Source: Ianthella basta
Lineage: Eukaryota > Porifera > Demospongiae > Verongiida > Ianthellidae
Assembly (NCBI GenBank): GCA_964019415.1
Contig: OZ025872.1
Coordinates: 7,805,822-7,869,821 of the forward strand
Reading direction: 5' to 3'
Length of the DNA stretch: 64,000 bases
Translations under genes and position numbers: made by a program
The notes under the pieces: model-generated
Seen by the model: the letters and a program-made list of their open reading frames with translations, nothing else
The model's database searches: none
Told to the model about the DNA's origin: nothing
Shown: in pieces, positions 1 through 61,400 of the stretch
Numbering within the stretch: position 1 is the stretch's first letter
Layout of the letters: the number at the start of each line of letters is the position of its first letter

Positions 1-24460
<24,460 letters not shown>

Positions 24461-30473: not shown

Positions 30474-33400
30474 CTGCATGGGAAAACAGCATTGATTTTG
30501 ATACACACACACAGGGTGAACAAGCTTGAGTGTGTGTGTGTGTGTGTGTGCGTGTGTGTGTGTGTGTGTGCGTGTGTGTGTGCGTGTGTGTGTGTGCGTG
30601 TGTGTATGTGTGTGTGCGTGTGTGCCAAACATCATCACTCCTCTTTTCCCGCATGTGTTACATATCACACTGTCATAGTGCAGTACTTGAACACTCATGC
30701 ATGTGGGTTGTTACTACAGTACAACTCACTCTTCAGGTGGTTCATAGCACAGCCATGTTTCTCCAGAACTTTACAGGCTTCCGGCAATACCTCTGCATGT
30801 TTGGTCAACAGAGATTGAACAATATGCTCCAACCCCCACCTTCCCTGACTAGCCTCCTCAAGGCACTCTTCTGCTGTTAGAAGACGCCTAGTAAAGAGCT
30901 CATTCAGTACTGCAGGGTGAGAATACGTATAGAAATCACTTGATCACTCACTGCTTCATACACTGTGCTGTGTATGCATTTTCACTACATAGTATACACA
31001 TTGACAACGAGACAAGCAAAACTGAGAGTGAGAAGGTGACAGAGGTCACGTGTTGACATCTTCCATGTCCACCATGAACATCTGAACAACTAAACACATC
31101 CCACCTACACTTGGCCCTTGTCATGGCAGCATGGCCACATCTTGACTGCACAAATGTGCTCAACTCGTACATTCAAGGTCCCTCCATTAACATAGGCAAT
31201 GATGATTCAGTGAATGATGGTTAGAAAGGATTGTAGTTAGGGTGGACTTGACTGTTGTACAGAGTTCACCACAGTGTAGTCTGACTACCTCACCAACCTC
31301 TCAACTTGTGAGCTTCATCAAAGTATTCACAGTAGTCAACCTTGTCCAGTAAGTCGGTTGTTCTGGTTGCAACCTCTGGTGGTTTGGTGCACTGGATACA
31401 GACCAACCAACCAGCCAGGTACCCTCCTTCTCCTCTCATCCTCTTCACTTCATCCTCGGTCACCAACTTCTCCTGGTACAACTCTGACAGAACTGTGTGG
31501 GATAGCAGCACTGATACACAGACTGGGCACACAAAACATTCTCACACTTTGTGACTGTGCTAATAGCAAAGGTATACAGTGTGTGAGTGCATGGGCCCGT
31601 GTGTGTTATGAATATATGTGTGTGTCCATGCAAAAACCCGGCTTCGTGTATTTTTGGTCAAAATTGAGATACTGCACATGGTGCATGATCTATGCGAAAG
31701 GCATCAACTGCTGCAGTGGCAGTTCCCATTTCCATTCCTACTGCGAGATATAGAAATTTTAAAACATGCTGGAATCTTTATTAATGACATTATAATATTC
31801 ATAAGCTGGTATAAAGATATTCATGATTACAATAAACATATTCATAGCCTCATGCATATTCAAAAGAGTAATCTTCATGCCAGTAAAAGAAGTCTTACAA
31901 GCATGCAATGACTCAAGTTGACCTACTAGGGCATCCCCTCTTATTATGTCCACTTTCCTTGCACACCGAACATGTACGACGCTTTGTTCCAGCAGTTGTA
32001 GGTAAGGAAGTTGGTTCACCTCCAGATCCTTGATGATTTTGCACTCCATCAGACTCCTGGTGAGGCTTTGGTGCACTTGGCTGTGGGCATGTTATATCTG
32101 CAGCCAGGTTGCAGGAACAGAATGGCCTTATCTTCTCAAAAAGGTACCACTGTCGTTCAAGATCCAACCCTTTTGGGAGAATCTGTTGCGGAGTGTCTGT
32201 GGCATTTGGACGGCATTTTAGGATCTGAATGCTGTGCTCAGGTGACTGAGAATATTTGCGAACGAAAACAACTCCAGGGTGCTGATGATCAAAGCGAAAT
32301 GTGTGATAGGATGTAATTAATGGTAATACTTTGAAATACTCAGAGAGAAACCGAGACCAATTGAAGAATTTGACTAGAGTTTCCCCATCAGTTGCAGTAA
32401 TCACTTGAGGAATGTTTCCTCCAACCTGAGATGAGTTCCTTACAATGCTGCTATGCAGTTGATGGTGTCAACTCTGGTCCTTCTATACAGTTTCTTAATC
32501 AGACCAAAATGTCTGTCTGGGGCGAATTTAGTATGGCCAGCAAGCATGAATGCCAATTTGACCGTCTTGTTCTGTCCCATGAGAACACGGTACGAAAGTT
32601 ACTGAATTAGGCAGTTATTCTTATTCTGCCCAACACAGTTGTCAGCATGCAAGAGGAAGTGATCTTCCTTCTGTCCATGGTTGGCCAAGTAATGGTGAAC
32701 CAAACTGACAGTTGCATTTGCCCCTTTCCCCACATTCTCTGACTCATCAATCAGATAATTGACCTGTGTCCCTAGAGGTTCACATGCCATTCCAAAAATT
32801 TGGCACTTCCTAGCCATCAGAAAGAAGGCTGGTCCTGGCTGCTGCGGATTATTCGGAAAATGCACTTGCTGTGCATAGTCGAAGCTATAGTGCATGGTAG
32901 ACGAATGGTTACCATCCGTTGTGGCATTCCTGCACTCAGCAATTTGGGCGTTATATCGCTCACGCTCTTCTTTAGCTAGGCGCAAATGTGCTTCTGCATG
33001 CTGCAGCCGCTCTGACTTCTCATCCTCTGATAGATGCGCCGATCGCATGATTTGCGCAATGTTCTGCTGACATTCGAAGCATAAATCTGAGGAGGGCTTC
33101 ATTGTAGCAATGTGTGGTATCAGTGCTTGCCAGAGATCGTAAAATTTACTTCTCCCTACAGGAATAACTCCAATTACTGCACAAGCAGCTCTGTAATCTC
33201 TATAGACTTTGCTTTTAGGCATGTCAGAAGGTAAAAGCAAAGTCTTGTCAGTTGCATTTGGCAGTCTACCTGGCAAAGGTGACCCATGTGTGATGCCAAC
33301 ATTTGTGATAAACTCTCGAACGCGAAAAACTTCAGAATACGCAATCTGGTTGTGCCTCGGTAATTTCGAATTTCCATGTAACCTTTGCACCACACCATTT

Positions 33401-36400
33401 CTGTCCACGGCTTTGCAGAGGTTCTCAAAGCGCTCCCTACCAATAATTATAACATGCACAAAGCAAAAGGTCTTCCTACAGATCTGTAGGCCATGCAAGT
33501 AGAAGCTAGTGAATGGCCAGAAAGTTGCCATGTCCCCGCGGTAGGAAGATGGCTTGCTGGCAGCGTTCGTACAAAGGGCATTGAGCTGAGCCATAACAAC
33601 TAGGTCTAAGTCCTTTCGAGCTAGCTGAAGACAGTTGCTACGAGTCAGGGTGATAGTGAGCTGAGAAAACTGACCTGAACATGGTGATTTGTTGGGCCCA
33701 AGAGTGCAGCCACAGGTTTCTGTCATGAACTTCACAATCTTGTCATCTTCCTCCTTGTCCTCGAAGCTGTGTTCCACACTGACTGCCGACGAATCACACA
33801 GATGCGGTGCATCTTCTTCCTGAGCTGGCTGGGTAACTCCTCCATCGCTCTGGCTCGTAGACGGCGAACAGAGACCTTCTTCCACTCCATTGCGGGCGCT
33901 AGCCGTCACTTCAAGTCCCTCTGCTTCTCCTTCGCGGGCGCTAGCCGTCACTTCAAGACCCTCTGCTTCTCCTTCGCAGGCAACGATCGTTACGTCGAAT
34001 TGTACCGAAGTTCGAAGTGAACTGAGATCCGTAATACCTTATTCGTCGTCGTCCGAATGTTCGGCGAGTGCACCCTGGTCTCTGGAAGCCTCGTACTCTT
34101 CTTCAGCAGTTCGGAACTCTTCCTCTAGTTGCGCTAAAACGCTTTCTAAATCCAAGCGTGATCTAACAGCCATCTTACTACGAAACTAGGCAAGGGAGGT
34201 ATCAAACGACAGGTCTCGCTGAGTTCTACAATCTCCAGTATGTCACTTGACGAAAACGCACACCATTCCGCAGATGCGAACGTTTCCATACGCGATTTCG
34301 TTTTTTCTGTTTCCTGAACATTATGCATATTTACACGAAGCCGGGTTTTTGCGTGGACGGCCACATATGCGTATATGTGTGTATAATACATGTGCATGCT
34401 TGTGTGTGCACAGGTGTGTGTGTGAGTGGCGTGTATGTGTAGTCTTGTCCCCAGACCCATCTTAAGCACGTGCATGTGAAGGGTCTTCGGACGAGACTAG
34501 TGTGTGCTTGTGGGAGGGGTGTGTGGGTGCACGTATGAGAGTGCATGAACACAACTTGATAAAACACAATATAGCAAAACTCACTCTTCAGCTCCTCCAC
34601 ATGGCAGCCATGTTTCTCCAGGACTTGATTTGTTTCTTGCACTACTTCAGCAGGTTTGAACAATACCACTTTATAAAGATGGTCCTCCCACACCCGCCCT
34701 CCCTTCCCAGCCACCTCAGAGCACTCTTCTCCTGTTAGGAGGTGTCTAGTGAAGAGCTCATTCAGTACTGCAGGGTGTGAATGGGTTTAGAAATCACTTG
34801 GCCACTCAATGCTTCATGCAGTGTGCTGTGTACACATGTCCACTACACAGTATATACTCAACAGTTGGACACATGTAAAAGGAACCAGAAAGTAAGACCC
34901 CTCCTACCCCTACCCCTGTATTGAAACAGTACAACAATCCTGTCAATAATTTTACAACACTCAGACTATGCTGCAAAAGTGCTTCTTTCCCAAATGCTAT
35001 TCACAAACATTTGTGTTCCCATTAACATTGGCTGCGTGTGAACTACTGAATCTTCTGACCGCCCACCAACCTCTCAACTGTGTTCCTTCCTCATTGTAGC
35101 CAAACTTGTCTATAAGATCAGCAGATTTGTCCACCACTTCTGGAGTTTTGGTGAACTGAATAGGGACAAGTTGGTCGGCCAGGTAGCCTCCTTTACTTTT
35201 CATCCTCTCCCATTCATCCTCAGTCACCAACCTTTCTAGGTACAGCTCTGATAGCACTGTGTGGGATATAACGTGAGAACACAACTCAAAGTCGGCCATT
35301 TTATCTTGCTCTCAATAAATAATTCAACTACTTCTGTACATTCACAACTGTGGGTCTAAACGTCATTATTATACAGTAATATAAGGCTACAAACTATATA
35401 AAGAACATATCAGCTAGTACAATGGACGGGTGGAGCTGTTTTAGTGAGTTCACTATTGACCAGTATGACCACCTCACCTTTCAGCTTATTTGCTGACTCA
35501 TTGTGTCCAAACTTGTATAACACATCTGCCGTCCTGGTCATCACCTCAGGAGGTTTGGAGCACAGTACTTTGTAAATTCTGCTAGCCAGGTATCGTCCTT
35601 CTCCTTTCAACATCTCCAAGTCAGTTTCAGCTACCAACTTCTTCTGGTACAACTCTGACAGCACTGTGTGGAACAATAGCAGCACTGATACACAGACTGC
35701 AGGGCACACAAAATGCACATCATGGGAACATAAATGTATCATACTGCAGTGTTGAAACTCACTCTGCAGGTCCTTCACTTGGCAGCCATGTTCCTCCAGC
35801 ACTTGACTGGCTTCTTGCACCACCTCTGTAGGTTTGGTTGACATGACGTGAGCAATATGGTCCTCCCACTCCCACCTCCATTTCCTAGCCACCTCAAAGC
35901 ACTCTTCTCCTCTTAAGAGGTGTCTAAGGAAGAGCTCATTCAGTACTGCAGGGTGTGAAAAGATTTAGAAATCACTTTACCACTCACTGCTTCATGCAGT
36001 GTGCTGTGTACGTATTTAATACACATTACAGTGACATGTAGTGACTGTACTCTGGCATCATAGCCATTGCCATGCAGGCCCAGCGGAACCGGTCCGGTTG
36101 CTCAGGCCATGGCCGGAGCAACTTTTCAGGAAGAACTGGAAATAACTTTAGAGGAATTAGGTAAAGTGTCCACCTAATAGTAATTCCCCAGACTTACCCG
36201 AAATGTTGCTCTTCTAAATATGGTTTTAATTGATGGATACAAGTATCCTACCAAATGTGGTCCTAATCTTGGTGACCAGGTCGGACACGACCGAGAATCA
36301 CCCTGCAGCAACACAGAACTGATGGTTGTTCATGCGACGCGACGGCCATTTTCAGCGGAAGCGATAAAATGGCGGGCCCTACTCTAGACGATCTCTAAAA

Positions 36401-39368: not shown

Positions 39369-40671
39369 CAAAGAATGCACAAATACACTCTGCAGGGAAG
39401 GAACAGAATACAAGTACACATGAGAATAAGTGCACGGAGCACAGATTGACAGAAACACTTTTCCAAGGAGTACAGTAAACAGCTACACTTAAGCATTGTG
39501 TCAGTCAATGCCAATACCATTGCACACACATGGATAGGGCCACCCCCTTCCCTCACAATACTGGACCAGGTAAAATATGCAACAAGATCAGAGTAAGACT
39601 AGAGGCCCAGAAGAGGCTGTCAGTGAAACAGCACTATGACACTATGCACACAGACACACACCCACACATTAGGTGTATACACATAATGTCCAACATTGCT
39701 AGTGAGTGGACTGTCTGGATCTGTCACACTAACTCTTGTTCTGTGCCTTGCAGCACTGTCGTTCATACTCCACCGCCTTCAGTCCCTCTTGACCCAGTTC
39801 TGGTAGTGGGGCAGTGTGTTTGAGGCAACAAACGCATGCAAGTCAAAGGAGGGGTGCTTCTCGGTCAAGGCATACAGCTCCCTGAATCCCTGGAGGGGAG
39901 AGGTAATGAGTAAAATGATTGGAAGCTCTTTGCAGAGGAGGCAGAGGGAGTGGTCAATACACCTCTTTAGAGCAATCCTGTACAATATTCACAAGGTCTC
40001 AACACAACTCCACTCATCATCTTTTGAACCACTGCTCCTTGTGTTATGTTATACTGGATCCTACATACCTCTAACTACTTGTATGTACAGTGTGTCTCAG
40101 GGCAGCTTGATATAGAGAATAATTCGCTGTACTACAAACACTACATACATGTCTACTGCCCTTTCTCACCCTCCTCCCTCCCCCTCTCACCTCTCGCTGT
40201 GTCTCCAGGGACCGGTCCCTCGTCTTGTCCAGTGCATCAGCAAGTGGTGTGGCCACCTCATCAGGGATGTCCACCAACACCAGCTGAGGTGGGCGCTTGG
40301 GCTGCACTCGGGAGGCTCCCTAATGGGAGAGGGTGGGGACAGATGTGGAGTATACCTAAGTATACAATTACACACACATACACAGACTGAGGGACACATG
40401 CAAATACACGTACACGCACAGACACACGCTTTGATGGCAAATCAGTAAAATTACTCTGACATGCATAGCGCAAAGCAAAAGTGACAGACAAGATGTCAGA
40501 AACTAGCTGTCACAGTACAGTCATTTGTTAGATGCACATTGCTGACGCAACACACACACCGATCACACACACATGAACACAAACACACAGCACACACAAA
40601 ACAACACACACAAAACAACACACACCCAAACACACCACCTTCACACACACAATCTTCACTAGTCTTCTTAC

Positions 40672-40813
40672 CTCTCTGGCCCCCTCTTTAGGTGAGGTCT
40701 TGGTCTGTGGTGCTGCACCCTCTCCACTCAGCCTCTTCTTGGCAATGGTCTTGCAGAGGTACTTGTACATGGCACTCTGTCAGCTGTCCTCCACCATGGT
40801 CAGGTGGTCCAGG

Positions 40814-40815
<2 letters not shown>
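40672..40815 (-). pseudogene. CKAP5-like exon with in-frame TGA and microsatellite acceptor
   Basis: Reads VLDHLTMVEDS, then TGA (40782-40780), then QSAMYKYLCKTIAKKRL in the same frame. The intron's 3' splice site is the last CAG of a ~185-bp CA tract on the minus strand, with no pyrimidine tract. Confidence 0.75.
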
Positions 40816-40817
<2 letters not shown>

Positions 40818-40892
<75 letters not shown>

Positions 40893-40913
40893 TGTGTGCA
40901 TGTGTGTGTGTGT

Positions 40914-41002
<89 letters not shown>
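40818..41002. repeat. (TG)n microsatellite abutting an exon
   Basis: Compound TG tract with CGCG and CATG interruptions. It forms the entire 3' end of the intron before exon 40815-40672. Confidence 0.97.
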
Positions 41003-41005
<3 letters not shown>

Positions 41006-41842
41006 AAGTGGGCATGTGTGCAATGTGCACAGAAGGGTACAGATTGGGAAGCTGCTGAACACTAATCCAATCCCACTGCACACAATTAGAAACACCCAGT
41101 GCTCTAAGCAAGCTGAGCACCAAAGGACTCACGCTGTCCCCCATGATGGCGACCAGGTGGAAGAGGATGGTCTTCACAGTGCGAAAGGGTGTGTCATCTT
41201 GGACCTGCCCCTCTGCGGTGCGGTCGTTGTAGCCAGTGAAGAAGTGGTGCACATTGAGGAGAAGCTGGTCAAAGTTGACTTGAGGAAGGATCTGGGAGAG
41301 CTGATGTGTCAGCTTCCAGAGTCACTAGAGAGGAAAGAGGAGACGGACAAGGAAGTACACTGACACAGAGGTACTGCTGAAAAGTGTTAAACTACATACA
41401 CTTGACCATTGCTCGACTGATCTCTGAACATATGCAAGCATCAAATTTTCAGCCAACTACCATTGAAGCTACTATAACCATTTATGCCAGTATTACACTC
41501 ATTAGTTGACTATCCACACAAAACTGCTGACCAATCACTCCATCAGAGAGGTGCCATACTCCTCAGAACATTACACCATAGTGCATGTATCAGGTACTCA
41601 CCTTCATGGCCATTTCAGTTAGCTTGGAGGGGTTGCCGTCCTGTCCAAGAAACTACAACATCACATGTAGAAGGGAACTAGAAGGAAGTGTGAGGAGAGC
41701 AAGCAGATCACTTAAAGCATCAGGTGTGTGTCCAATACAAACTCTGACATGAAGTGTGGAGTAGGTGGTGAGGAATGCATACATACATACTGTGACGAGT
41801 TTAATGACACTTTCTTTTTTCTTGATACCATACAAACATGCA

Positions 41843-46300: not shown

Positions 46301-46824
46301 TTTCGGAGCGCGCCAAAGTTCTATCCTCACTCTCGCTCCAAATAATTAGGAAATGGAAAATGAAATTAAAAAGGTAACAGATGCACACTACATACAGTCA
46401 GTGGAATAGGAAAGAATACATAGTCTACTAATACAAACACACAAAAACAAATACGTAGGGAATAATAGAATTTGAAAATAAAGAGACATGTGTACATGCA
46501 ATGAACATTGTCTTGTGGTACTTTGAGTTGAGCAAGAGCTGAGGTGGTCATCACATCAGCTAGTCTGCTTCCCTGTGTGGGACACAGTGGAGAGATAGGA
46601 GAGAATAGAACTGAAGGCAATGACAACAAGTGTGAAGTGGGCATGTATATGTGTGTGTGTGTATGTGTGTGTGTGTACTTGTGTAGTGAGTACATGGGTG
46701 GAGTGACGGTGGGTGAACACAGAAGGTTACAACTATGTTGCAAATTAGACCAATGGAGCAAGTTGCATGCCACACACATACAAGCGCACGCACACACACA
46801 CACGCATGCATGCACGCATGCATG

Positions 46825-46828
<4 letters not shown>

Positions 46829-46920
<92 letters not shown>
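46829..46920. repeat. (CA)n microsatellite
   Basis: CA tract starting 28 bp downstream of the paralog 2 stop codon, so inside its likely 3' UTR. Confidence 0.97.
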
Positions 46921-46923
<3 letters not shown>

Positions 46924-46947
46924 TTCATTCACTCTTCACCAACCTCT

Positions 46948-47240
46948 TCATTGCAACTCTTCCTTCATCATCTTCCCAAAAGATTGCATTTTTGGATGAC
47001 CTTCCACTTCACTAGCCACATCACAGTACTTTCGCAGAGTGTCCAAATTGGCATGACGTATCAAGTGGTCATACAGGATCTCTTTGGCATCTTCATTTGT
47101 TGCAGTGTTGATGTGTGATAATACCACTTCAGTGATTACTCCAATGCGTTTGAGCTTCAGCAGCTTTAACTTGGGATTCACGACTTCAAAGAACTCGGTC
47201 TCGTGTTTCTTGAGTAACTTTGATACTGAAACTGGTGAAA
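46948..47240 (-). CDS. Terminal CARD-like exon, paralog 2
   Basis: 293 bp to TGA, reading VSKLLKKHETEFFEVVNPKL ... ILYDHLIRHANLDTLRKYCD ... GKMMKEELQ. Helix pattern (L..F......V.P..LL..L...GVIT) fits CARD/death-fold domains. Confidence 0.8.
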
Positions 47241-50200
47241 CTGCATCGTATAAAGAGGAAGAGTGCCTTGAACCAACATAGTGTCCCCATAGGCATATGT
47301 GCAGTGTGCAGCATGGTAGCAATGTGAACAAGGCATGCATACTACATAGAATATTAAAAGTAACACACTGGGTCCCCTCAGTGCTAACACTACGTTTCTA
47401 TACAAACCATGTACAGTATAATGTATTGGGAGAGTGCACTTGACACAGTCCTTATCAGGTAACTACTGTCACAGCTGAAGTGCATGGCTGTCATCTTCTA
47501 TACTAGGGATACACTTGTTTACCGGCTACCCCTTGGGTTCCTTACCAGGTGGGCTAGCTCCAACTTTCTCAACCTGAGCACTGATTGGTCGAGGGCCACT
47601 GGGAGGAGAGGAGCTGCTATGCCTCTCTGAAACTGCAAAACACAGTACGTACACAGTGCAACGAGGAGTGCTAGACAGTTATACAAAAAGTACATAACTG
47701 TGTACATTGTCAATGTCAGTTACAGTGTTGGGGGCTCTATAATTTATAAAGGTTTAGAAGCAAGGTAGAGCTGACAGCAGGTAAGTAAAGAACAGGTAAG
47801 TAAAATAAAATTGCTCACCTCCTCGTGAAATGTTGTCCACTAGGTGGAGTATTTCTGGATCAGATGGGTGTGGTTGGAGCTAGAGGGTGAAGGAGAGAGA
47901 CAACGACTGAGGTCCATATAATAGAATAGCAATAGTTCATCAAAAGCACAATTGCACCTAGTCCAAATGCTTGCCCCGATGACTTAAGTGCCAGACTAAT
48001 CATGGGTGAATGGTCTGGAGCTAGTGTTTGGATCATGCACTGATATGAGCAGCACTCACCTCTACTCCTTCAACAGGATGGAACCACACCTGATAAGCTT
48101 TCAAGTACTCATGGTGCTTTGATGACAAACTACAAATAACAGTACGCCCACGTGGGGTAGCCAGGTGGGTGGGGGGTCCACAGGGACACGCAAAGCCATA
48201 AATGGTAGCTGCTTCATCACTGAACTTGGAACCAAATACGGCTTGGGTGGATGCTTGAATTGCTGCTTCAAATGTAGACCGAATGACACTGCAGCAATCA
48301 TGCAGTTCAGCTGCAGTACATCTTGAATGAATGGAGGGGACACTAGGGACGATAGTGATGTATCCGGGAGATTCTGCTATGTAAATGTTCAGCTCCTTCC
48401 ATTGAAACTGAATGGCCAAACGAGTGCTCTTCTCTGGAATCACCTGCCAATCTTCCTTCTTGGCTAGCTTCACTGCTAGGCGAGTGAAGATGCCTTGTGG
48501 AAGATCCTGGGTTGACACAAAGGCATTCTTTTCAAATCTGAAAGCCACTAGCAGTGGAGCCACACTGCCTGGTGCAGATGCTTGTGAAACCTGTGAAGGA
48601 AGTGCTGCCGGCATGAAATAATCAACTGTAGAGGCACCAGGAGGTGATAAGCAGGCTGTTACACCAAGGTGGCACAGGCAGCGTAGTAGCCACACTCGGT
48701 CCACCTCCTTGAGGATGCCCAGCTCATTGAAAAGACCTTCATCCAAGTTAAGGATGCCGGTCTTCTTAAATGTCTTGGCTGCCATGCACTTGGGAATCTC
48801 AGTGAACTGTATTGCAAGGAGCTTTGACACTTCCTGTAGGAACATGCTGTTGTCTGTGCAGACTGTGTCGGAGACATCAGTGTGATCAACGAAAGTGAAG
48901 ACTCCAAGGGAGTGAAATAACTGCAGAAGGCTACGGAATTCGCGACTTGGGTCGGCTGAACTGACACACTTCAGCTCATGGGCATGCTCCAATAGCTCAG
49001 CAAATGGGAAGAACTTCTGAGGAACCTTTCGGGTCACCATTTCAAAGTGAAACCATCCTATTGGTATCTTGGTTTTCAGGGCACCATCGGAATGGGAAAG
49101 GACCATACGGAGATCATTAATGCTGGCCTGGTCTTCTTGAGCTCGCTGTGAGGCTTCATCATGCTGCATATTATTCACAAGGAAGAATAGTTGACCATTG
49201 GAATTGGGGACAATATGGGAATAATACGGCTTCTTCTCAAGCAGCTCGATACGCTTGGAAATCTTAGCAGCTGCTACTGCAGCAGTAATGCCCATTTCCA
49301 TTAGCTGATCTTTGAATGTGCCAACTAGAACTGTGCGGAATGTCGGAAATCGGATATTCAGCGGTAATACACTCTCATTACTGGATACCTTGTATGCCAA
49401 GGTCTGGGCGCTGGAAAGAGATCGCAGTGTCGTTCCCCAAACTGTCTCTAAACTTGCCGTCATCTTCACCTCTGCGGACTCATTTGGCCGGTATGTGATA
49501 GGTACTGGCTGATCGAGGTTCAGGGCTGCATTGAAGACGTGCACGTAAGTACATGGGATGTCCAAAAGCAAGGGAAGGACATCTTGAAAGCTTGGCTGAC
49601 CAGCGGTGTCAAGCAAGTGGACGAACCTGGCACCATTTAGTTGCAGTTCTTCCTCTAGACCTGCACTGAGGTCCCGCATGAGGCTTGAGTGTGCTTCAAG
49701 GAATGCAGATTGGCTGGTTAGCGTTGGAAGAGAAGAAGGTACGGAATAGGGCGAGTCTCCTGCTTTGGGACCAACTTTTTCACGAGACGCACGAGAGGGG
49801 ATTTCACTGGTAACAGCAGATTGCTTGATTTTTGTCACCAGCTGTTTAGGTTTGGCATGGTGGTCTTCTGGAGGATCCTTTGGTATTGCTGCAGTGACAT
49901 GGTACTGGCGGCTGAGGCAGGATGACCTGATAGAGCAGGCCATCTTCTCATCAGAGAGCGGCAGCCAGACTAAGGTTCCTTCAACTGCATACTTCTCTGC
50001 CGAAATGGAGACAACTTCTGGCTTTGCCATGACAGGTGTGCTGATCTTGACTTCTTTTGGCTTGTTGTGCACCAAGAGGTGCTTCAAGCAGGATTTGCCT
50101 GTGGCAGGTGGGCCCATTATAATGTTACGGTTGATAGCGACATCTACAGATCCCTGCTTCTCCACTGCCTCCTCATAGTCAGGTAGCCATGAGGGTGGTT

Positions 50201-52389
50201 TCTGAGGTGCTGTAATGAACAAGAAGGGACACACAATTTAGACAAATAATTTATGCATACCTGAGACAAGCAATTATAACAATATGCAGGGTACTGTGTT
50301 ATAGGATACAGCTATTAGTGGGTAATTGGAAATATGTATACACGCTTTCTTGCACTCTTTCAAATATGAGTTGTTGCATCCATTAAACCATGATTGATCA
50401 AATACATGTGCATACAGAGTCCACAGTGCATGTAATTAACTGTATAGCAATGAATGACATAAAACACAAACCAAGTCAATGCTTACCAGAGTCAGCTATT
50501 TCCAGCAGCCTCCATGCAGTGTCAATGTCACCTTCATTAACAGCTTTGCATACTGTGTCATCAGCGAGTGCACCTGTACAAGTCCAAGAGGAGTAACACC
50601 TCACCGTTAACTGACAACATCCAACAACAACACTGGAATGTGCAAGGGTTCAGCCAGCTCTGAGGTGTAGGCCTTCTGAGGTGACAGGTGGCAGGTGTCA
50701 ACTGCTACCTGTCACCTGTCAGCTGCTATTGAGCATTGGAAGTAAGGACAACTGTAGAGGGTGACCATTCTACTGACTCTCCTAATGACATTACAGTTAA
50801 CCCAATCTGCTCAAACTAGAGTGAAGCACATTTCTGAAATTCACTGCACACATACACACAGGTGTCTTAGAGATTGCTACACCAAACCACATCAACCAAG
50901 AAACACCCATGCTCTGTGGCACATTACATAGTCACACTTCTGTAAGTTTATTCACTCTCTCTAAAGACTATTACAACTGTGATAATTAAGGACATACATG
51001 TGTGTAGATGAGCAAGGTTTTCAAATTTGTGTCATCAGTTGCTGACTCAGGTTATCAAAGGACTTCACGTAAGAGCTCAGCCATGGAACATACCAGTTGG
51101 TGAATGGTAACGTGGTCATGTGGGGGTGAGGTCATATAGTGTAACTTGATTGTTGGCCACTTTAGTGTGGGGCTCACTCAGGCTCATGCCATTGAATGAA
51201 GCACACTCACCTTTTAGGAGGAGCAGCTTTGCTACTCCTAAATGGCCTCCCTCAATGGCCAGATGTAATGGCGTCTTGGCTGCTCCTCCAGTGCTGGCAC
51301 TCTGCAACAGGAAACAAAGCAGGAGGTAACTGGACAAGGTGGAATGGAGGGGAATGCTATCATAATCACATAGCACATGATATAAGTGAACAACTGATTA
51401 CTGGTACTTTCTAGTAATAGATCCCGTTGCCATGGTAACGTGCATCTAAACGATGTTTCTAAACGTCGTAGACACCCTGGGTGTTGTTTCGCGCGTGGTC
51501 TATTTCGTCTAGCCGTGTTCTAATTCGACGCGCGGCGTTCGTGCCTATGCTCTAAATAGCGATTTAGAGCATGGGCGTGGCACGTGCGTCGTTCGCGCTA
51601 TGCTCTAAATCCCGATTTAGAGCATGGGCGTGGCATGCGCGTCGTTCGCGCCTATGCTCTAAATAGCGATTTAGAGCATGGGCGTGGCTTGGGCCCATGG
51701 TCTATAGCAGAGAAACTGCAGCTGTGATAACAATAGTAGCTAACTCCACAACATACGATGCACAGTTCGCTCAGCTTACTTGTTCGTCTACAAACAGGGT
51801 AAAGCAACAATCCGGCATGCAGCGGCCTCTGAACCAGAGCCAAGAAAGGAACTGGTTACGAGCTGGGAACAGGCTTAGGACACCGCTCTGGGAAACGCTG
51901 TGGCTGACGGGGCTGACAGTGAGTAAGCTTACGTTTAGCTTACGCTCCGCATCCACTGCCGACCTTTAGGGACATCTGCTGCGAGATGACAAACCCCATA
52001 ACCAAACGACGTTTTCTCGGCCATTGTCAGAAATTGCTAACTACTTCCGGAAGACGCGTGATGACGCAAGTACGAGTAGTTAAACTGCTTCGCTGCCGCT
52101 CCTTGCCTAATCGTTGGGATCTATAACACTTAAATGCTGACCAATCGGTGTCTCTGAAGATTTAGACCACTCAGCACTCGGGCGCTTCGTGCCCTCGCGC
52201 CTCGTGCTCTAAATCTCAGAGACACCTCTTGGTCAGCATTTAACTATTACATAGAGAATGCACTGACAGGCGTCCAGCCAAAACAGCCATTAATGTGACC
52301 TACTTGCACTTTCATATACTCATAACATAACCTTTGCTCTTCACACAACACACTGTGTATTAGACACACACACACACACGCACACACGC

Positions 52390-52475
<86 letters not shown>

Positions 52476-55400
52476 AGACATACACCAACACATGTCAACA
52501 TGCACACTCACACTGTACACACACCTTGACATGGTCTTCGGGGCTGAACTTGAACTGATCAATAACCAGCTCCACTACCTTCGCATGGCCCTTCTTTACT
52601 GCTAAATGCAGCATGTTGAATCCATCCTTGTCAGTACTGTTGATGAGTGAAGGCATCTTTGGTTCTAGGTGGCAAATGGTATGGCCATGACCTACCATTG
52701 CAGCCAGATGCAGAGCATTTCGTCCCAACTATATACACAAAGGGAATGCATGGCATTTAAATACACAACTGGCATAGGATGGACATACAAAACAGAACAG
52801 AAGACAGTGAAGTAAACATGTGCCAAGGGAACAAACGAGACATGTGGCTGATCATGAATTGTAGAGATCAATGAAGGCTTATGTTGATATTTTCTGGATT
52901 ACAGGAGGCTGGCTGCTATAGACAAGTGGTTGTATTATACAGCAACCACTATGGTACAGGTCCACTGTACTACCAGTTGTAGATGTCAACATGTCAGTAT
53001 AGTGTAAGTGAGGCACAACAGTGACAGTTGGGGGACTCTCCCATTCTCTAGCTTCCAACCCTTAGTTTGCATTAGTGCCCTATCTTCACTACATGAACTA
53101 ATGAGCAGTAGGGGTTGTGGTTAGACTCTGCCACCCTGTAAGACCTCAGCCTCACACCTTGGTCAATAACACATGAGATCAATTGTCACTTACCTTGTCC
53201 ACATCCATTACTGAGCAGCAGTACGTTTCCATTAGAACATCAATAAAGGCATTGTGACCATTGTATGCTGCTGTCAACAGAGGTGTCCTGCCCACCTGCA
53301 GGAACACAGCAGAGACAACAACAAGAGTGGAAGGTAATGTAAGGAGAGCATACACCACTGGTCATCACACATAATGTGGCTTTGAGGTGCCTACAATACT
53401 TTACGGTACATACTAGACTCAGCACACATGATACAAACATGTTGTTTAATTTTGGATCCAGAGAAGTCCGCTCAATTCCAACCCACTTCACAGCCTACAA
53501 CACTTAGGCACATGCATGCACTCTCATCACACAACACACAACCCACTACGGGTCCCAATGCACACTGCAAGACACCTTGTGATATAACACATACACCCAC
53601 ATTGTCACGTGCAGTGGTGTCCCCACTGTATTCATCAATTAGAACTTTGGCAAATTCAACGCGGCCATTCTGAGCTGCACAGTGCAGTAGAGAGGATCCA
53701 TTCTTGGTAGTGCTTTGAAGAAGTGCCTCCATCTTTGGTGCTAGGTAACGAAGTGCGTCAACATGACCACCTAGTGCAGCATGGTGCAGAGCATTGCTCC
53801 CTTCCTACATAAAGGAATGCCAAACAACTTAAGACCTGACTGCTACAGGAGTGGACACACACTATTCATGTACATGATGGATGTGTCACCTCATGCCTCT
53901 TAAAGGACACACAGTCTACAGTAACAGTGGCTACTAGCTGCAAGGCCACCGCCTTCGGCAGGCCCTGTATATAGGAGGGTAAACTGTAAAGTGGTCCAGT
54001 GCTTCCTGTAGGGGGATCTAGTGCGTCCTGTAGAGGGGTCCTGTGTGTTTGTCGCAGATCCAAGATGGCCGACGGTCGGTTCTTTTTGGATTTTCGCCGC
54101 ACACTCCTCGGCAGCAGCTTATTTTAGCATGTCTACCACCTTATATTGATGTGAGGTACAGCGTGCCATGGCTGGGAACGTTTGGTCGCTTTCCGTCGAC
54201 GCTCGCAGGAGGAGTTCACAAACAATGGTCGGGGCTCCTTTTTTGTATTGGCAGCATAGGAGCGTGCACGGAAAACCGTATATTTTCTCCATAAATTCAA
54301 GATGGCGGCCGGTCATTTGGAGGTTTTTCGCCGCGCACTCCTTGACAGGGGCTTCTTCGCGCACGTTGCCCCCTTAGATCGAGACCGGGTGTGGCATCCA
54401 TAATCTGGGAAAGTTTGGTGTCCATGCACCGTTGCTCGCGGGAAGAGTTCGCGAACAACCGTTCTGCTCAACTCCTTCTTAATATATATAGATGTACTAG
54501 GATAGCATGCAGAGTTGGGACCATCAGCAGAGCACATTAGGAGAAGGTACAATGTATTACAGGTGCAAGGAAACATGCCATGTCTGACAAAGAACTATAT
54601 AATTATGCTGAAATTGACTCCTCCAAGGTCACTCCACCAAGGTCACTCCATCAATGTGACTCACTATGTTCTGTGCAGCTACAGGGCAACCCTGTTTGAG
54701 ACATTCCTCTAATTTGTGCAAGTCCACATTTTGTGCTGCCACCAAAAAAACATACTCCAGTCCCTGTACAGGAGACACAATGGTGCTTTCATCAAATGCT
54801 GAGCAAAACACATTCCAATGCTGTAAAAAGTGACATATCAGGAATGACACCATTTATACATAGATAATAGTCATACAGTGCTGTACATGTTGCATGGGTT
54901 TTCACATGCAGGATGACCACAAAGTAAACAGAACTTGTGTCACCTCATTAAAGGGCACCCAGGTCACAGTGCCCATGCATGGCATGTATGAAGTGGCAGC
55001 ACTAGCTCACGTGACAGAGAGGCTACTTTACATTAATAAATAAGTGTGTGTACTATATCCATTCACAGTACTAAGTGAGAAAGTTCTCTATTAATTGGTG
55101 GAAGTGAACTGTGCATACTTTCAAGGTCTGGCCATACATCCAAATGTATCCCCGAATGTGCAGTATATAGAGTGTCCACACAGTACGGGTGTGCATCACA
55201 CATTAATGCACATTGAAGTGCTACGGGAAAATCCTCTTGAATCAAAGTGGTCAATTTGACAGTGAAACCAATTCACAATAGGAGAATTGCTCACAAGTTG
55301 AGAGTTGCTTATTGTAGAGATTAATCACTGGAAATTTTACACCAACCAGCCTTCTACACCAATGGTGTCTCAGGAGGCTGGGGGGGCATCATGCCCTATT

Positions 55401-58400
55401 GATGACAACCAGTGATCACAGCCTTCCCCCGCTAGTCATCCTACAAAGATGGTAGAGCCACAGACAGCTGTTTCGCCCTAGTTGGGGCTCATCAGTGTGG
55501 CGTACTGATGGATGGTAAGATGACTAGCTACTCTTGTGTCCACCACTAGTGGTGGACACAAGAGTAGCAGAGTAACATCCATCAGTACGCCACACTGATG
55601 AGCCCCCCCTGAGACACCATTGGTGTAGAAGGCTGGTCGGTGTAAAATTTCCAGTGATTAATCTCTGTCAACCAATCCTCAGCAGTGGTTCAACTGCTAC
55701 AAACTGTCCTTTGCTTATTGTACATGTATTTGTACATGTATTTGAGTTCTGGAAAGCAAGTAATGCTAACAGTCAAGAAATGAAACAGCAAATGAGCAGT
55801 GATAGCATAAGTAGGACTGATGTATTTGCTTGCTCAAAACAAATTACCAAGAGTTTTAACTTTGCCTATTAAATAAACTGTAGGTTTGCTAGTTCACTTT
55901 GGATAGAGAGCCAAATGACTCATAACACTGATCAGCACACAAAAACAAGCTAATGTTAACAACGTGCACTCACCTTCTGAGGGTCATCTATAATGCAACC
56001 ATATTGGTCAATGAGAATCTTTACAAGTTCGGAGTGTCCACTTGCATATGCCACCATCACAGGTGTCAAGCCTTCCTGCAAGAGGCAGAGATGGATACAG
56101 AGTATAGTGAGATGGAGAATGCAAAGGCTGATAGATCGCTGAATAATAATAATAACGTCATATTATTTATTATTGGGACAAAATTTACGGGTTATGAATG
56201 AAAATACACCTTTGTCACATGTGTATACTTGCCATAAGATAACCCACAGGTGGCTGAATCTTTGGAGGACAATCACAGGTCTAGCACGAACAAACACACA
56301 CACACACACAAGTACATTTGCATACATATGGAATAGTGTGTGTATGTGTACATGTACATTATAAAATGCTCAATCTGCAATTTAAAGTACAAATTATAAT
56401 CAGGTCTGACTTTTAAAGGGGATGTCAAAATGGGGTAGTTTACAATACCACTAGCCTGTGCGCACTGGTGGAATGAAGCCCTTGTAATGCCATCAACCTT
56501 GGTTGCCTAAGAGTATTGTGTTAGTGCAGTCACAATGTCTCATGATCGTGGATCAAAGGGTGCATTAAATTTAGATTACTAATAGTGCATGTGACCCAGT
56601 TCAATTGCAGACTTCCTTGGGTGAGGGGATCCGTTGCTATGTACAAGCAATCAAAGAAGCCAGGTTGCATTGCATGTCCAAGGCATTGACTTCTAGTTTT
56701 CGATAGGTTCAAGCCTCCTGACCATGCAATGAGGCTCATGTAGTTTTGTGTGCACCATTCAAATCACAGACATTTCTGGCCAAATCTTACAACAGTGCAT
56801 GAGTGGTGGACATTCTGTGGGTTACATTATACTCAAATAACTGTGCATACACTAAGTGACCTACCCACACAGCTGTCGGAGGACTGACATATGGACTAAA
56901 GACAACTTTAGTATAACGAATAGCAAACAAAACACTCCTCAACAAATGTCCACATGTACAACCACAAATACATGTCCATACATCCACACACTGCTTGCAC
57001 ATGCTAATAGACTTATTGATGTGCACAATGTCAAAACACAGTGCACCCTATGGCCAGCTGTAGCTTGTACAAAATACTATACAAAAGCACAATAGTGCAA
57101 ATTACAAACACCTAAATGATCACACTATAGGCAGCTCATTGCTCAACCTGCTATGCCACACTTCATATTACATTACATTTTAAGGAAATTATGTATGTAT
57201 CACAAGAAAACCTGCTACACAGAACACTAGAAAATGTGGACTAAGACCTCTCTAATGAGGGCAGTGCATACTGTCCCAGCTACATCAAGATGTGCACAAA
57301 GGTACCTCTGAAATATGGACACCTCTTAAATAAGAACAGAGCCTACTGTCCCAGCTACGCACATAGAGATGAATGCTAATTTACCTCTGAAATAAGGGCA
57401 ACTCTCTAACGAGGACAGTGCCTACTGTCTCAGCTATACAGGGATGCATACAAAACTACTTCTGAAATAAGAGTACCTCACTACTGTGGATAATTGGGTC
57501 GTTCCTACAGGTGCTCAGACTAGAAGGAACTGTGTCATTGTCGTGTACAGCATACAAATGCTGTACGGTGAGGAAACGCCTGTTGAAGGACCACATTAAA
57601 GTATTCATGGATAATCACTCAGTGCCTTACGCACGTGGTATCCATTATACTGTGTGTGTTCCACTCCTATACTGTGATAGGCTACGTATAATGGATAAGC
57701 ACATGCAGGCAATAGAATACACTACATGCACTTAGGGACACAATCAGCATTTTATGTGCCATAACACTTTGTGTCAGTGACATAACTATGGGTGGTGAGC
57801 ACACTCTATTTTAGAGGCACAAGGACTAACTTGAGTGCAATTGGCCTATCCCCCCCCCCCCCCCCCCACCCCCCCAATTATGATATAAAATGCACTCATA
57901 CACACACTACAAAGCACTAAAGAGTGTACGAATTTTGGTCATGAAATGATGAAGTTACCCTAGTAAATGCATGAATGGGCGGAATCACCCGCAGAACCAC
58001 ACTAATGCCAGCCTACGCTAGCTAGGCTACAAGGAAACATAGATGCTGGGGTCTGCTACTACTGGAACTACAGTACATGACTGTGGTATACATACTTGCC
58101 AAACGCACACACGCATGCACACACACCATTGTATGGTAAGCAGCACACAATTTTTACTGCATGGTTTATGTGGCTCTAATAGACAAATGTCCACATCTAC
58201 TGTCCCTGTGCAGTGCATCATGTATGTATGTTCAGAGATCACGAAATGTATCACACATACAATAAAATATGTAGACCAACCTTGGTTTTGGATTCTACAT
58301 CTAAATGACAGGTCTTCATGAGGTAATCAAGCATGGACAAATGACCCTCTCGAGCTGCCCAGTGTATGGCTGTGAAGCCTTGATCATCTGTATCAAAGAG

Positions 58401-61400
58401 GTGATCCTTCATCTTTGGGGCAAGGTACTCTGCAATGTCAACATGGCCTCCAATAGCACACGCATGAAAGGCATTCATTTCACCCTATAGTAAACAAAAG
58501 GAATAGGTTCACAACAGATCACCACCTGTACACACATGCAGGGTGCACACCTCAGGATGAAGAAGGAATTAGTGGATAGTAGGTGTGGGCGGTACATGTC
58601 ACATGGCTGCTGTGACATCTGCCCTATCTCATGAAACATTATACCAAGCTATAACATACTGCCATTCACTGTACACTGCCATCATTGCCAGGTATGTACA
58701 GTAATGTACTGAAGGCATGCATAGGTAATATTCAAATAGTTTACAATGCAAGCCATGCAATGACCGTATAGCCAGCTACTCAAGCAGCTGCCATTGTCGG
58801 TCATGATGTCAAAATGATAGTCTTTGTTATGCTACCCCCGTACAACTTTCAAATAGCAACCCTTTCACTTCACTAATGCCATCCTACGCTATAGCTAGGC
58901 TAGTAGGAAACATAGACAATGGGGTCTGCTATAGCTACTACTGGAACTACATGATTGTAGCATACATGCCAAAATAAATACACACACGCACGCACGCACA
59001 CACACACCATTGTATATAATGGAAAGCAGCACGCAATTTTACTGCATGGTTTATGTGGTTCTAGTATACAAATGTCCACATCTACTGTCCCCGTGCAGTG
59101 CATCATGTACATATGTTCAGAGATCACAAAATGTATCATACATACAATAAACAATGTATACCAACCTTGGTTTTGGGCATGCATAAGTAATATTCCAATA
59201 ATTCACAATACAATGCATGCCATAAATGTATTGTGGTGCAAAGTGTGACTGGACACATAACTCAAGGACACACACTCAGCATTCAAAGCACATGGAATGC
59301 CAATTGCATACGCCATGTCTATGGCATGGTTGGCTGACAGTGAGTGCAGCAACACATGACAATTAGGGGCACACACAATGACACCCAACCATTCATTGAC
59401 ACTTACGTCTACCGTCCTAGCTACATACAGATGTGGAAAAAGAAAGCTACTTCTAAAACAAGACACCTCTCTAATCATGGCAGTAGTGAATGAGGGCAGT
59501 AGTGATGGTTTCATTTCTAAACAACATTGTTAAGAGAAGAGAAATTCTCACCTACCCTACCCTAGCATCCACATTTGGCATGTGAATGGGGTGGTAGCAG
59601 GCAAGTTGACATGGTCAAGTGTTACAACCAAGCTACATCCCATATAGGGCAATTTGAGTTCCTTGCTAAGGGGCTTGCAAAGTCTCTGGGTTGGATGGTG
59701 AGATGTCTCTGTTTGGGTTAATGTGGAAATGGCAGTTCCTGCAGGTAGTGGGGTTCAACGCATCTTATGCTATCTTAGCCCAATTGCAGCTTCGAATCAA
59801 CAGAGAGATCATGGTATGCCGGTTTGATCAACATAGGATAGAAGTGACTGTAGGGGTGATAGTGGCCCTTCAAGGCCTGCATGGTCACTTTTGGGCACTC
59901 CCAGCTGTGAGGTCTGAGGAATAGTTTATTCTCATTGTTATCGATGTGATCAGGGCCATTCATCGGTATGCAGTATGTGGTCCAAGTCCCACCCCCACAG
60001 CATTAGTTCCAGACAGTATGGATGAAGATTGAAGGGGTGTTCACCATGTACAGTTTTGAAACGAATCATGTTTGCTTAGCAACAAGGCAGGCAAAAGTGT
60101 TGCTTTGTTACAGGTAGGGGTTTAACGAATACTCTTTATTATAAGTTTGAATATTCGTTGTTTCCAATGAATGAACAATTATTCGAATATACATTTCACC
60201 GGAAGTGATTACCAAATATGGCGGCCTTCTGAGAAACGATTACCGGGAAGTAAGAGGAGAAAGATAGATGAAGAGCAGAACGAGTGCACTTGACCTGACA
60301 AAAGCATTCTTCTGTTGTTACTGCATCAACCATGCAAGTTAGGAAGTGTTTCATTTCATAGACACATATCAACTGGTTCCTGAATGAAACAAGTTTCATG
60401 TGGTTGGAGGCCATTTTTAGGACGTCATATACCTACATAAAATTAATAATCAATAAAATCCTTCAATGACAATTAGGTGTACGTATGCACAGTTCAGTTC
60501 ACCCCACCACCTATTGATACTTGCAGTATGCATTGCCCTCACCTTAGTCCTGTGAAGGACGTCAGCACCATAACTTTCACAAAGCAGCTGAGCTAGATCT
60601 GTGTGTCCATACTGAGTTGCATAGAATAGAGCTGTCGAGCCATCCTGAAGGAAGGGTGTAAAAATGGACTGAACATCAAGTGTGTGCTTGTATGACATTG
60701 ATAAGGGAGTAACATCCACGCATATCACTTTACAAGGTACAAATATTGGGGGATTGAGTTCTAGGCAGTATGTATCCATAGAAAAATTGGAATGGGTACA
60801 GTGAGTAATTATACTACAATTCATACAAAATTTAATTGGTTCCTGTATACCCTGGCCTTCCATCAACTTGTTGTACAGTTCTACTCGTGTTCCAGGTACC
60901 TAACTTCCTCATGACATCTGAGGGCTTCATCTGGAACACAAACGTATGTTCATGCTCCTATGAAATGTTTCAAAACATTGCCCTGAGTCTACTTACATTG
61001 CTCTTTTCCTCAACGTTGCTTCCATTTTCAAGAAGATAGTTAGCCACCTCTGTGTGGCCATTCCATGCTGCCAACAGAAGTGGAGTGCCACCTTTCTGTA
61101 CATGAAAAAAAAACAGAAATCCGATGACATGACATGTCTACTAGTGTACCACACAAACTAGTGTACGTGCACTGATAACATTTCTAATCAAAAGTTATAA
61201 TGCAAAACATAGGAAAATTGGAAATGTAATTAAGTACAAATGAAAGTACTCCGAATTTCAAATGTGCTATGTTGGACAGAAATTGTGTTGTAATTTGAAC
61301 AAGTGCAGTTACCTCATTTTTTACATTCACTGGCATCCCTGCCCTACTAACTCCTTCACTTTGGTTAGGTCTCCTTCTTTGGCTGCATCCAGCAATTCCT

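What the first reader, a model, noticed from the sequence alone, without database searches (positions are those of the whole stretch)
55437..55514. Complete type I hammerhead ribozyme on the minus strand
All invariant core bases (CTGATGA, GAAA, GTC cleavage triplet) and all three stems form by exact complementarity, including a 6-bp inner stem I, a 5-bp outer stem I across an internal loop, and a tiny 3-bp stem III. This layout matches Penelope-element/retrozyme hammerheads, but here it sits in a short foldback within an intron of an immune-type gene.
Basis: partly seen in the sequence, partly recalled or inferred. Interest (0 to 1): 0.9.

Follow-up and report, generated by a model that had tools for sequence, protein, structure and literature searches.

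The report
Self-cutting RNA element with Penelope-type ends
The ribozyme motif is real and belongs to a small mobile "retrozyme" present in hundreds of copies in this genome; the way its copies sit in the DNA carries the fingerprint of Penelope-type jumping genes, which points to the helper that moves such elements.

Summary
The hammerhead motif is real: Rfam Hammerhead_1, 42.5 bits, window 55457-55501(-). It is one copy of a family: a 46-nt core pattern finds 389 sites genome-wide, reversed control 0. The family forms non-coding units of about 347-374 bp, often head-to-tail, i.e. metazoan non-LTR retrozymes (PMC7229834). The window copy is one insertion: a head-to-head foldback, 55315-55710, flanked by TTGCTTATTG on both sides.

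Of 49 independent insertions, 30 are head-to-head, 19 direct, none tail-to-tail. Outer RNA-sense 3' ends fall at two places about 40-44 nt apart, S and T (73 of 79). In 23 of 24 head-to-head insertions with both ends in these zones, one end is S and one T. Two hammerhead-bearing Penelope-like (PLE) families in the same genome obey the same rule, 21 of 21 listed pairs, matching the PLE "tail" and two-site internal initiation in print (PMC3846280, PMC11167929). Most likely PLE machinery integrates the retrozyme from one or both nicked target strands. PLE and retrozyme end sequences are not detectably related, and nothing was shown at RNA level. In the host intron the ribozyme is predicted to be masked by its inverted arm.

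The parts
55457..55501 (-). type I hammerhead ribozyme core (stem I, stem II, palindromic stem III)
   Evidence: Rfam RF00163, 42.5 bits, E 1.7e-7
55462..55463 (-). predicted self-cleavage site (after GTC); origin of the unit numbering
   Evidence: GTC triplet in the sequence; cleavage itself not tested
55315..55551 (-). sense arm of the retrozyme insertion (unit 281-369 then 1-147); outer end is the short (S) 3' end
   Evidence: 97.0% identity to the 369-nt unit
55544..55606 (+). inverted arm, part 1 (unit 281-348), holds only the 5' half of the hammerhead
   Evidence: 87% identity to the unit
55608..55710 (+). inverted arm, part 2 (unit 88-191); outer end is the long (T, 'tail') 3' end; units 349-369 and 1-87 are missing between parts 1 and 2
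   Evidence: 90% identity to the unit
55527..55568 (.). perfect palindrome at the head-to-head junction (21 + 21 bp)
   Evidence: inverted repeat I3
55305..55314 (.). left copy of the target-site duplication TTGCTTATTG (12 bp TTGCTTATTGTA if the two element bases 55315-55316 are counted)
55711..55720 (.). right copy of the target-site duplication TTGCTTATTG (12 bp with 55721-55722)
55573..55606 (.). stretch complementary to the hammerhead's 5' half (55484-55517), predicted to mask it in a host transcript
   Evidence: inverted repeat I2, 34 nt, 97%; fold
55959..56162 (-). open frame with a weak ankyrin match upstream of the element in the same-strand gene
   Evidence: Pfam Ank_2 2.5e-4, 22.0 bits, under the cut-off of 27.3; Ank 20.7 vs 21.1
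53475..53804 (-). open frame with ankyrin repeats downstream of the element in the same-strand gene
   Evidence: Pfam Ank_4 7.5e-12, over the cut-off

Best explanation
The motif is the ribozyme of a non-autonomous retrozyme. Inferred cycle: tandem units are transcribed, the hammerhead (probably as a dimer, because stem III is palindromic) cuts them into monomers of about 350-370 nt that are circularised, and the enzyme of a resident Penelope-like element (PLE: reverse transcriptase plus GIY-YIG endonuclease) nicks a target on both strands roughly 8-15 bp apart and extends the nicked DNA on the retrozyme RNA. Reverse transcription starts at one of two fixed internal sites, S (in subfamily A mostly unit 144-153) or T (mostly 191-203). 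If one strand is extended, a direct array with one fixed 3' end results; if both are, a head-to-head foldback with S at one end and T at the other, as in the window copy. Shown here: the ribozyme motif, the family, the unit, target duplications, the two end sites, the one-of-each rule, and the same rule in resident PLEs. Inferred: cleavage, circles, and PLE action in trans. In the ankyrin-gene intron this copy is most likely an inert by-product of an insertion, its ribozyme masked by the inverted arm.
For: Rfam hit; 389 core copies, control 0; one array of 3.3 units without a difference between its units; subfamilies with units of 368-370, 366-374 and 347 nt; strong self-pairing of the unit, z -7.97, with S and T in its two unpaired stretches 141-160 and 179-207. 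Insertions: 53 segments; 2 unrelated hammerheads and 2 segmental duplicates dropped, 49 left: 30 head-to-head, 19 direct, 0 tail-to-tail. Outer 3' ends in the S or T zones: 73 of 79; 5' ends of the 19 direct arrays in those zones: 1 of 19. Head-to-head with both ends in zones: 23 of 24 are S+T, 1 S+S, 0 T+T (about 1.5e-6 if independent at p 0.5); 6 further head-to-head insertions have one end outside the zones. Boundary match of 8 bp or more: 32 of 49 against 0.66% of shuffled pairings (one of the 32 is element sequence, some lie a few nt off the boundary). The 30 head-to-head junctions all differ, so these are separate events. Resident PLEs: GIY-YIG 55 matches, a minimal hammerhead pattern 272 times, control 0, 21 of 21 listed head-to-head pairs S+T with a tail of about 35 nt, target duplications of 10 and 8 bp read directly in two loci. 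Literature: PAc cuts and extends both strands and starts internally at two adjacent sites whose spacing is the 'tail' (PMC11167929); A. vaga Penelope has head-to-head inverted repeats, 8-10-bp duplications, a 31-bp tail at one end, junction palindromes (PMC3846280).
Against: The end regions of retrozyme and the two PLE families are not clearly more alike than shuffles (best of six comparisons: 36 of 500 shuffles as good), so neither is shown to be the helper. No RNA data: no cleavage, circle or expression. The S and T zones, and the S/T border in the PLE lists, were set after seeing the data. The in vitro PLE study saw no difference of start site between the two strands (PMC11167929), so it does not predict the one-of-each rule. 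A reverse transcriptase fragment that is not a PLE by my judgement lies in the same window, so other helpers may exist; LINE insertions were not tested as a control. The two arms of an insertion are more alike than permuted arms (1.3% vs 3.3%, 0 of 20,000; 19 insertions), but for the window copy 12 of 18 foreign arms are closer than its own, and only 3 private variants are shared by both arms in the sample, so a single template is not proven. Covariation in the stems does not exceed shuffles.
Confidence: 0.78

Rival explanations
1. The retrozyme is moved by a LINE, and the head-to-head copies are ordinary twin-priming inversions as known for L1.
For: Target duplications of about 8-15 bp, 5' truncation and short overlaps at junctions also occur with LINEs (recalled); an RVT_1 fragment is present in the window.
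Against: In L1 twin priming the second primer starts at scattered internal places (recalled); here both starts are fixed and one of each is used in 23 of 24 cases. PLEs of the same genome follow the same rule in 21 of 21 listed pairs. LINE insertions of this genome were not examined as a control.
Confidence: 0.13
2. It is a DNA foldback element or MITE with terminal inverted repeats that happens to hold a hammerhead.
For: Inverted repeat arms, target duplications and a palindromic centre in the window copy.
Against: 19 of 49 insertions are direct arrays, 18 of them with one end only in the S or T zones; the 30 head-to-head junctions all differ in position, and the copy number per arm varies; a DNA transposon would copy one fixed inverted unit.
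Confidence: 0.03
3. A host-owned intronic ribozyme that regulates the ankyrin gene, as proposed for hammerheads in amniote introns (recalled).
For: It lies between ankyrin exons in sense orientation with an intact core.
Against: Hundreds of near-identical copies elsewhere; own target duplication; predicted masking by the inverted arm, 35 kcal/mol. No orthologue was available for a conservation test.
Confidence: 0.04
4. Satellite DNA spread by unequal exchange and recombination, without retrotransposition.
For: Identical head-to-tail units in one array.
Against: Dispersed copies with private target duplications and fixed 3' ends.
Confidence: 0.02

Closest known systems
Metazoan non-LTR retrozymes (Cervera & de la Pena 2020, PMC7229834; abstract, passages and sections 13, 14, 17 read, no supplements)
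   Same: Type I hammerhead, 170-400-nt tandem units, many dispersed copies, GC under 50%, target duplications longer than 4 bp, highly self-paired unit, PLEs in the same genome.
   Different: Head-to-head insertions, two fixed 3' ends and their one-of-each rule are not in the main text as far as I searched it ('inverted' and 'target site' occur 0 times there). The host here is not identified, so a new phylum is not claimed.
Penelope-like elements with hammerhead and 'tail' (Frangieh 2024, PMC11167929, parts 1-2 of 4 read; Arkhipova 2013, PMC3846280, passages and Discussion read)
   Same: Head-to-head inverted copies, 8-10-bp target duplications, optional tail of 30-40 nt at one end, palindromes at junctions, two adjacent internal start sites, tandem copies, hammerhead upstream of the start sites.
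   Different: PLEs encode RT and endonuclease; the retrozyme encodes nothing recognisable (longest ATG frame 42-78 aa in a tripled unit). No significant sequence similarity of the end regions.
LTR retrozymes of plants (PMC4918200, seen in listings only)
   Same: Hammerhead, circular RNA cycle, non-autonomous.
   Different: By PMC7229834, plant forms have type III hammerheads, LTRs, PBS, PPT and 4-bp duplications.

Membership tests
Hammerhead ribozyme, type I (RF00163) | covariance-model score above the curated threshold | tested here: met
   42.5 bits vs 34
Hammerhead ribozyme, type I (RF00163) | three stems that close in one molecule | tested here: inconclusive
   stems I and II close; stem III ACAGCTGT is a palindrome: at most 2 bp with a 4-nt loop, or 8 bp between two copies
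Hammerhead ribozyme, type I (RF00163) | self-cleavage in magnesium | not testable with these tools
   needs a transcript
Metazoan non-LTR retrozyme | type I hammerhead in tandem non-coding units of about 170-400 bp | tested here: met
   369, 366, 347 nt in the reference loci, 368-374 by spacing in others; longest ATG frame 42, 78, 45 aa
Metazoan non-LTR retrozyme | multiple dispersed copies | tested here: met
   389 core matches; 49 independent insertions studied
Metazoan non-LTR retrozyme | GC under 50% and target duplications longer than 4 bp | tested here: met
   GC 0.491, 0.478, 0.493; 32 of 49 with a boundary match of 8 bp or more
Metazoan non-LTR retrozyme | no LTR, primer binding site or polypurine tract | not tested
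   no dedicated search made
Metazoan non-LTR retrozyme | expression as circular RNA | not testable with these tools
   no RNA data
Penelope-like element (as a coding element) | RT and GIY-YIG open reading frame | tested here: not met
   unit has no long frame
Penelope-type integration signature | head-to-head inverted copies with a short target duplication | tested here: met
   30 of 49 head-to-head, 22 of these 30 with a boundary match of 8 bp or more
Penelope-type integration signature | optional tail of about 30-40 nt at one of the two outer ends only | tested here: met
   tail about 40-44 nt; 23 of 24 resolved pairs S+T; resident PLEs 21 of 21 listed pairs
Penelope-type integration signature | end sequence shared with a resident PLE | tested here: not met
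   not above shuffles for two PLE families; a third GIY-YIG locus gave no usable match; other PLE families of the genome were not examined

The most novel reading that the evidence does not exclude
Animal retrozymes are satellites of Penelope-like elements: a PLE complex holds one circular retrozyme RNA, uses its two start sites once each, one per nicked target strand, and so writes head-to-head or rolling tandem copies into the genome. The strict one-of-each rule would then report a single RNA engaged by two enzyme subunits.
Probability: 0.4. Interest if true: 0.8.

Novelty: new variant of a known kind. Interest (0 to 1): 0.68.

Why it matters
What moves animal retrozymes is open: PMC7229834 calls PLEs only 'a strong candidate', PMC11722881 (passages seen) leaves LINEs or PLEs, and the review PMC7761336 (passages seen) says the repeats show no conserved motif from which the helper could be deduced. 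Here the ends of the insertions supply such a mark, and hundreds of copies beside hammerhead-bearing PLEs make the question directly testable with one purified PLE enzyme and one short RNA.

Tried and rejected
Shared end sequence between retrozyme and PLEs: alignments of three retrozyme subfamilies with two PLE end regions did not clearly beat shuffles; a third GIY-YIG locus (L103, L104) showed a 69-bp shared inverted stretch and only a degenerate hammerhead-like motif on one side, no help. Covariation in stems I and II: not above shuffles. Single-template test: arms more alike than permuted, but not for the window copy, and private shared variants only 3, so left open. Target motif: only a mild AT excess next to the ends, 0.64 vs 0.56. 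Asymmetry of arm length between S and T arms: none, S longer in 13 of 23. (subfamily B end region, genome-wide) could not tell inner units from ends and was not used. The mir-3149 match in L009 is under its gathering score in a GT-rich stretch. Naming the host was not attempted with data; gene content reminded me of sponges (recalled only), so no species or phylum is claimed.

Printed record: searches combining retrozyme or hammerhead ribozyme with sponge, Porifera, Amphimedon, Penelope, twin priming, head-to-head, inverted repeat and target-primed listed no paper that, from titles and abstract starts, reports this end rule in retrozymes. Several lists were capped (20 of 41, 20 of 29, 20 of 80, 10 of 415, 12 of 50 shown); only open-licence papers are held, supplements were not seen, and two papers on PLE hammerheads were not held. 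PMC8490949 (passages) gave nothing on this point.

Full report
What is there. The window holds one Rfam match at gathering level, the type I hammerhead at 55457-55501 on the minus strand (42.5 bits). In the predicted fold of a 3.3-unit transcript the palindromes of the second and third ribozyme pair with each other over 8 bp, though their stem I is open in that fold, while the first ribozyme has stem I closed. This suggests, and does not show, a dimeric ribozyme; activity was not tested.

A family, not a single motif. The genome (209 Mb, 96 contigs) has 18 hits to the Rfam family in a search that scored 73 of 23,027 candidates, 257 DNA matches to the region with 40 of 900 candidates scored, and 389 sites of the 46-nt core with up to 3 mismatches against 0 for the reversed pattern. 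One array of 3.3 units shows no difference between its units. Three subfamilies have units of 369, 366 and 347 nt in the reference loci (spacing 368-370 and 374 in other arrays of the first two), GC 0.48-0.49 and no long reading frame. Of 79 sites with CTGATGAGNCCC in the 49 segments, 72 keep the full core. The unit is far more self-paired than shuffles (z -7.97, 0 of 100). These are features by which PMC7229834 describes metazoan non-LTR retrozymes.

Anatomy of insertions. I numbered the unit from the cleavage site and mapped 53 genomic segments. Two were unrelated hammerheads and two were segmental duplicates, leaving 49 insertions: 30 head-to-head, 19 direct, 0 tail-to-tail. The RNA-sense 3' ends that face outwards fall in two zones: in subfamily A, S at 139-161 (mostly 144-153) and T at 191-214 (mostly 191-203); in B 150-151 and 194-197; in C 140-150 and 176-196. 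73 of 79 outer 3' ends lie in the zones, while 5' ends of direct arrays do so in 1 of 19. The zones were chosen after seeing the data; the 5' ends and the PLE data below are the controls. Of the 30 head-to-head insertions, 24 have both ends in zones: 23 are S+T, 1 is S+S, none T+T (about 1.5e-6 if independent at 0.5); the other 6 have one end in a zone and one elsewhere. In the predicted fold of the unit, linear or circular, S and T lie in the unpaired stretches 141-160 and 179-207 on either side of a small hairpin. Boundary matches of 8 bp or more occur in 32 of 49 insertions against 0.66% of shuffled pairings; one of the 32 is element sequence and some lie a few nt off the boundary. All 30 head-to-head junctions have different positions, with overlaps or short fillers; a few are symmetrical or nearly so, as in the window.

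The window copy. It spans 55315-55710 between two copies of TTGCTTATTG (55305-55314 and 55711-55720). The minus-strand arm (55315-55551) ends at S and has the complete hammerhead; the inverted arm (55544-55710) ends at T and has lost its middle, including the 3' half of its hammerhead. Same-strand frames with ankyrin repeats lie on both sides: 58254-58484 and 53475-53804 over the Pfam cut-offs, 55959-56162 just under them; so the copy is very likely intronic, though splice sites were not mapped. A transcript through it pairs the hammerhead's 5' half with the inverted arm; forcing the hammerhead costs about 35 kcal/mol. I expect no useful cleavage there.

The same rule in resident PLEs. GIY-YIG endonuclease has 55 matches (150 of 176 candidates scored), several in inverted pairs. 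By coordinates, a minimal hammerhead pattern lies a few hundred bp downstream of it in several loci; it has 272 sites with up to 3 mismatches, control 0. Reading the ends of two families: one pair has a 10-bp duplication TCTACGTAGA and a tail on one side only, another an 8-bp duplication ATTGAATG and a tail on one side only. Genome-wide match coordinates (40 of 105 and 40 of 218 candidates scored) give 14 head-to-head pairs in the first family, the query locus among them, and 7 in the second (all 48 rows; one search had 6 after leaving out two fragments). All 21 are S+T, tail about 35 nt. The border between S and T was set by me in the gap of the end distribution. Because the search ranks long matches first, S+S pairs could be under-listed; T+T pairs are less likely to be missed, and none was seen.

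How it most likely works. PMC11167929 shows that a PLE protein cuts and extends both target strands and starts reverse transcription at two adjacent internal RNA sites, whose spacing is the genomic 'tail'; PMC3846280 describes head-to-head copies, 8-10-bp duplications, a 31-bp tail at one end and palindromic junctions. The retrozyme insertions share these marks. I infer that PLE enzyme integrates retrozyme RNA, probably circular, from one strand (direct arrays) or both (head-to-head). Why S and T are each used once is not explained in vitro: that paper saw no difference of start site between strands. One RNA held by two subunits would explain it. The arms of an insertion are on the whole more alike than permuted arms (19 insertions, 0 of 20,000), which fits, but for the window copy 12 of 18 foreign arms are closer than its own, and private shared variants are too few to prove it.

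Against. No sequence similarity ties the retrozyme ends to the two PLE families, so the exact helper is unknown. LINEs are not excluded by a direct control. Covariation of the stems is not above shuffles. No RNA evidence exists here.

Noticed in passing
L008 (C2:6408432) and L076 (C2:4117638): Other type I hammerheads, 37.2 and 35.7 bits in the genome search, with longer stem III loops and only about 30 nt of the retrozyme unit matched around the core.
   Followed up: partly
window 1662-3890 and 48033-50237, minus strand: Two paralogous open frames of 742 and 734 aa with a nucleotide-binding-like motif (GPPATGKS, judged by eye) and no Pfam match; one follows the ankyrin exons.
   Followed up: partly
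window 7812-8372, minus strand: Reverse transcriptase fragment (RVT_1 2.6e-10), LINE-like in my judgement; an overlapping frame 8072-8542 looks like its continuation but was not tested.
   Followed up: no
window 31913-34038, minus strand: Two neighbouring open frames (184 and 479 aa); the longer has a weak DUF7869 match under the cut-off; transposon-like by recall only.
   Followed up: no
G000:C2:8917730-8921060 (L103, L104): A third GIY-YIG pair with a 69-bp shared inverted stretch and a degenerate hammerhead-like motif (CCTACGTGGCCGAAACGTC) on one side only.
   Followed up: partly
window, e.g. 5131-5583, 15536-16127, 40577-41128, 46366-46999: Very long (GT)n/(CA)n runs, frequent enough to open spurious frames of 120-184 aa on both strands.
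   Followed up: no
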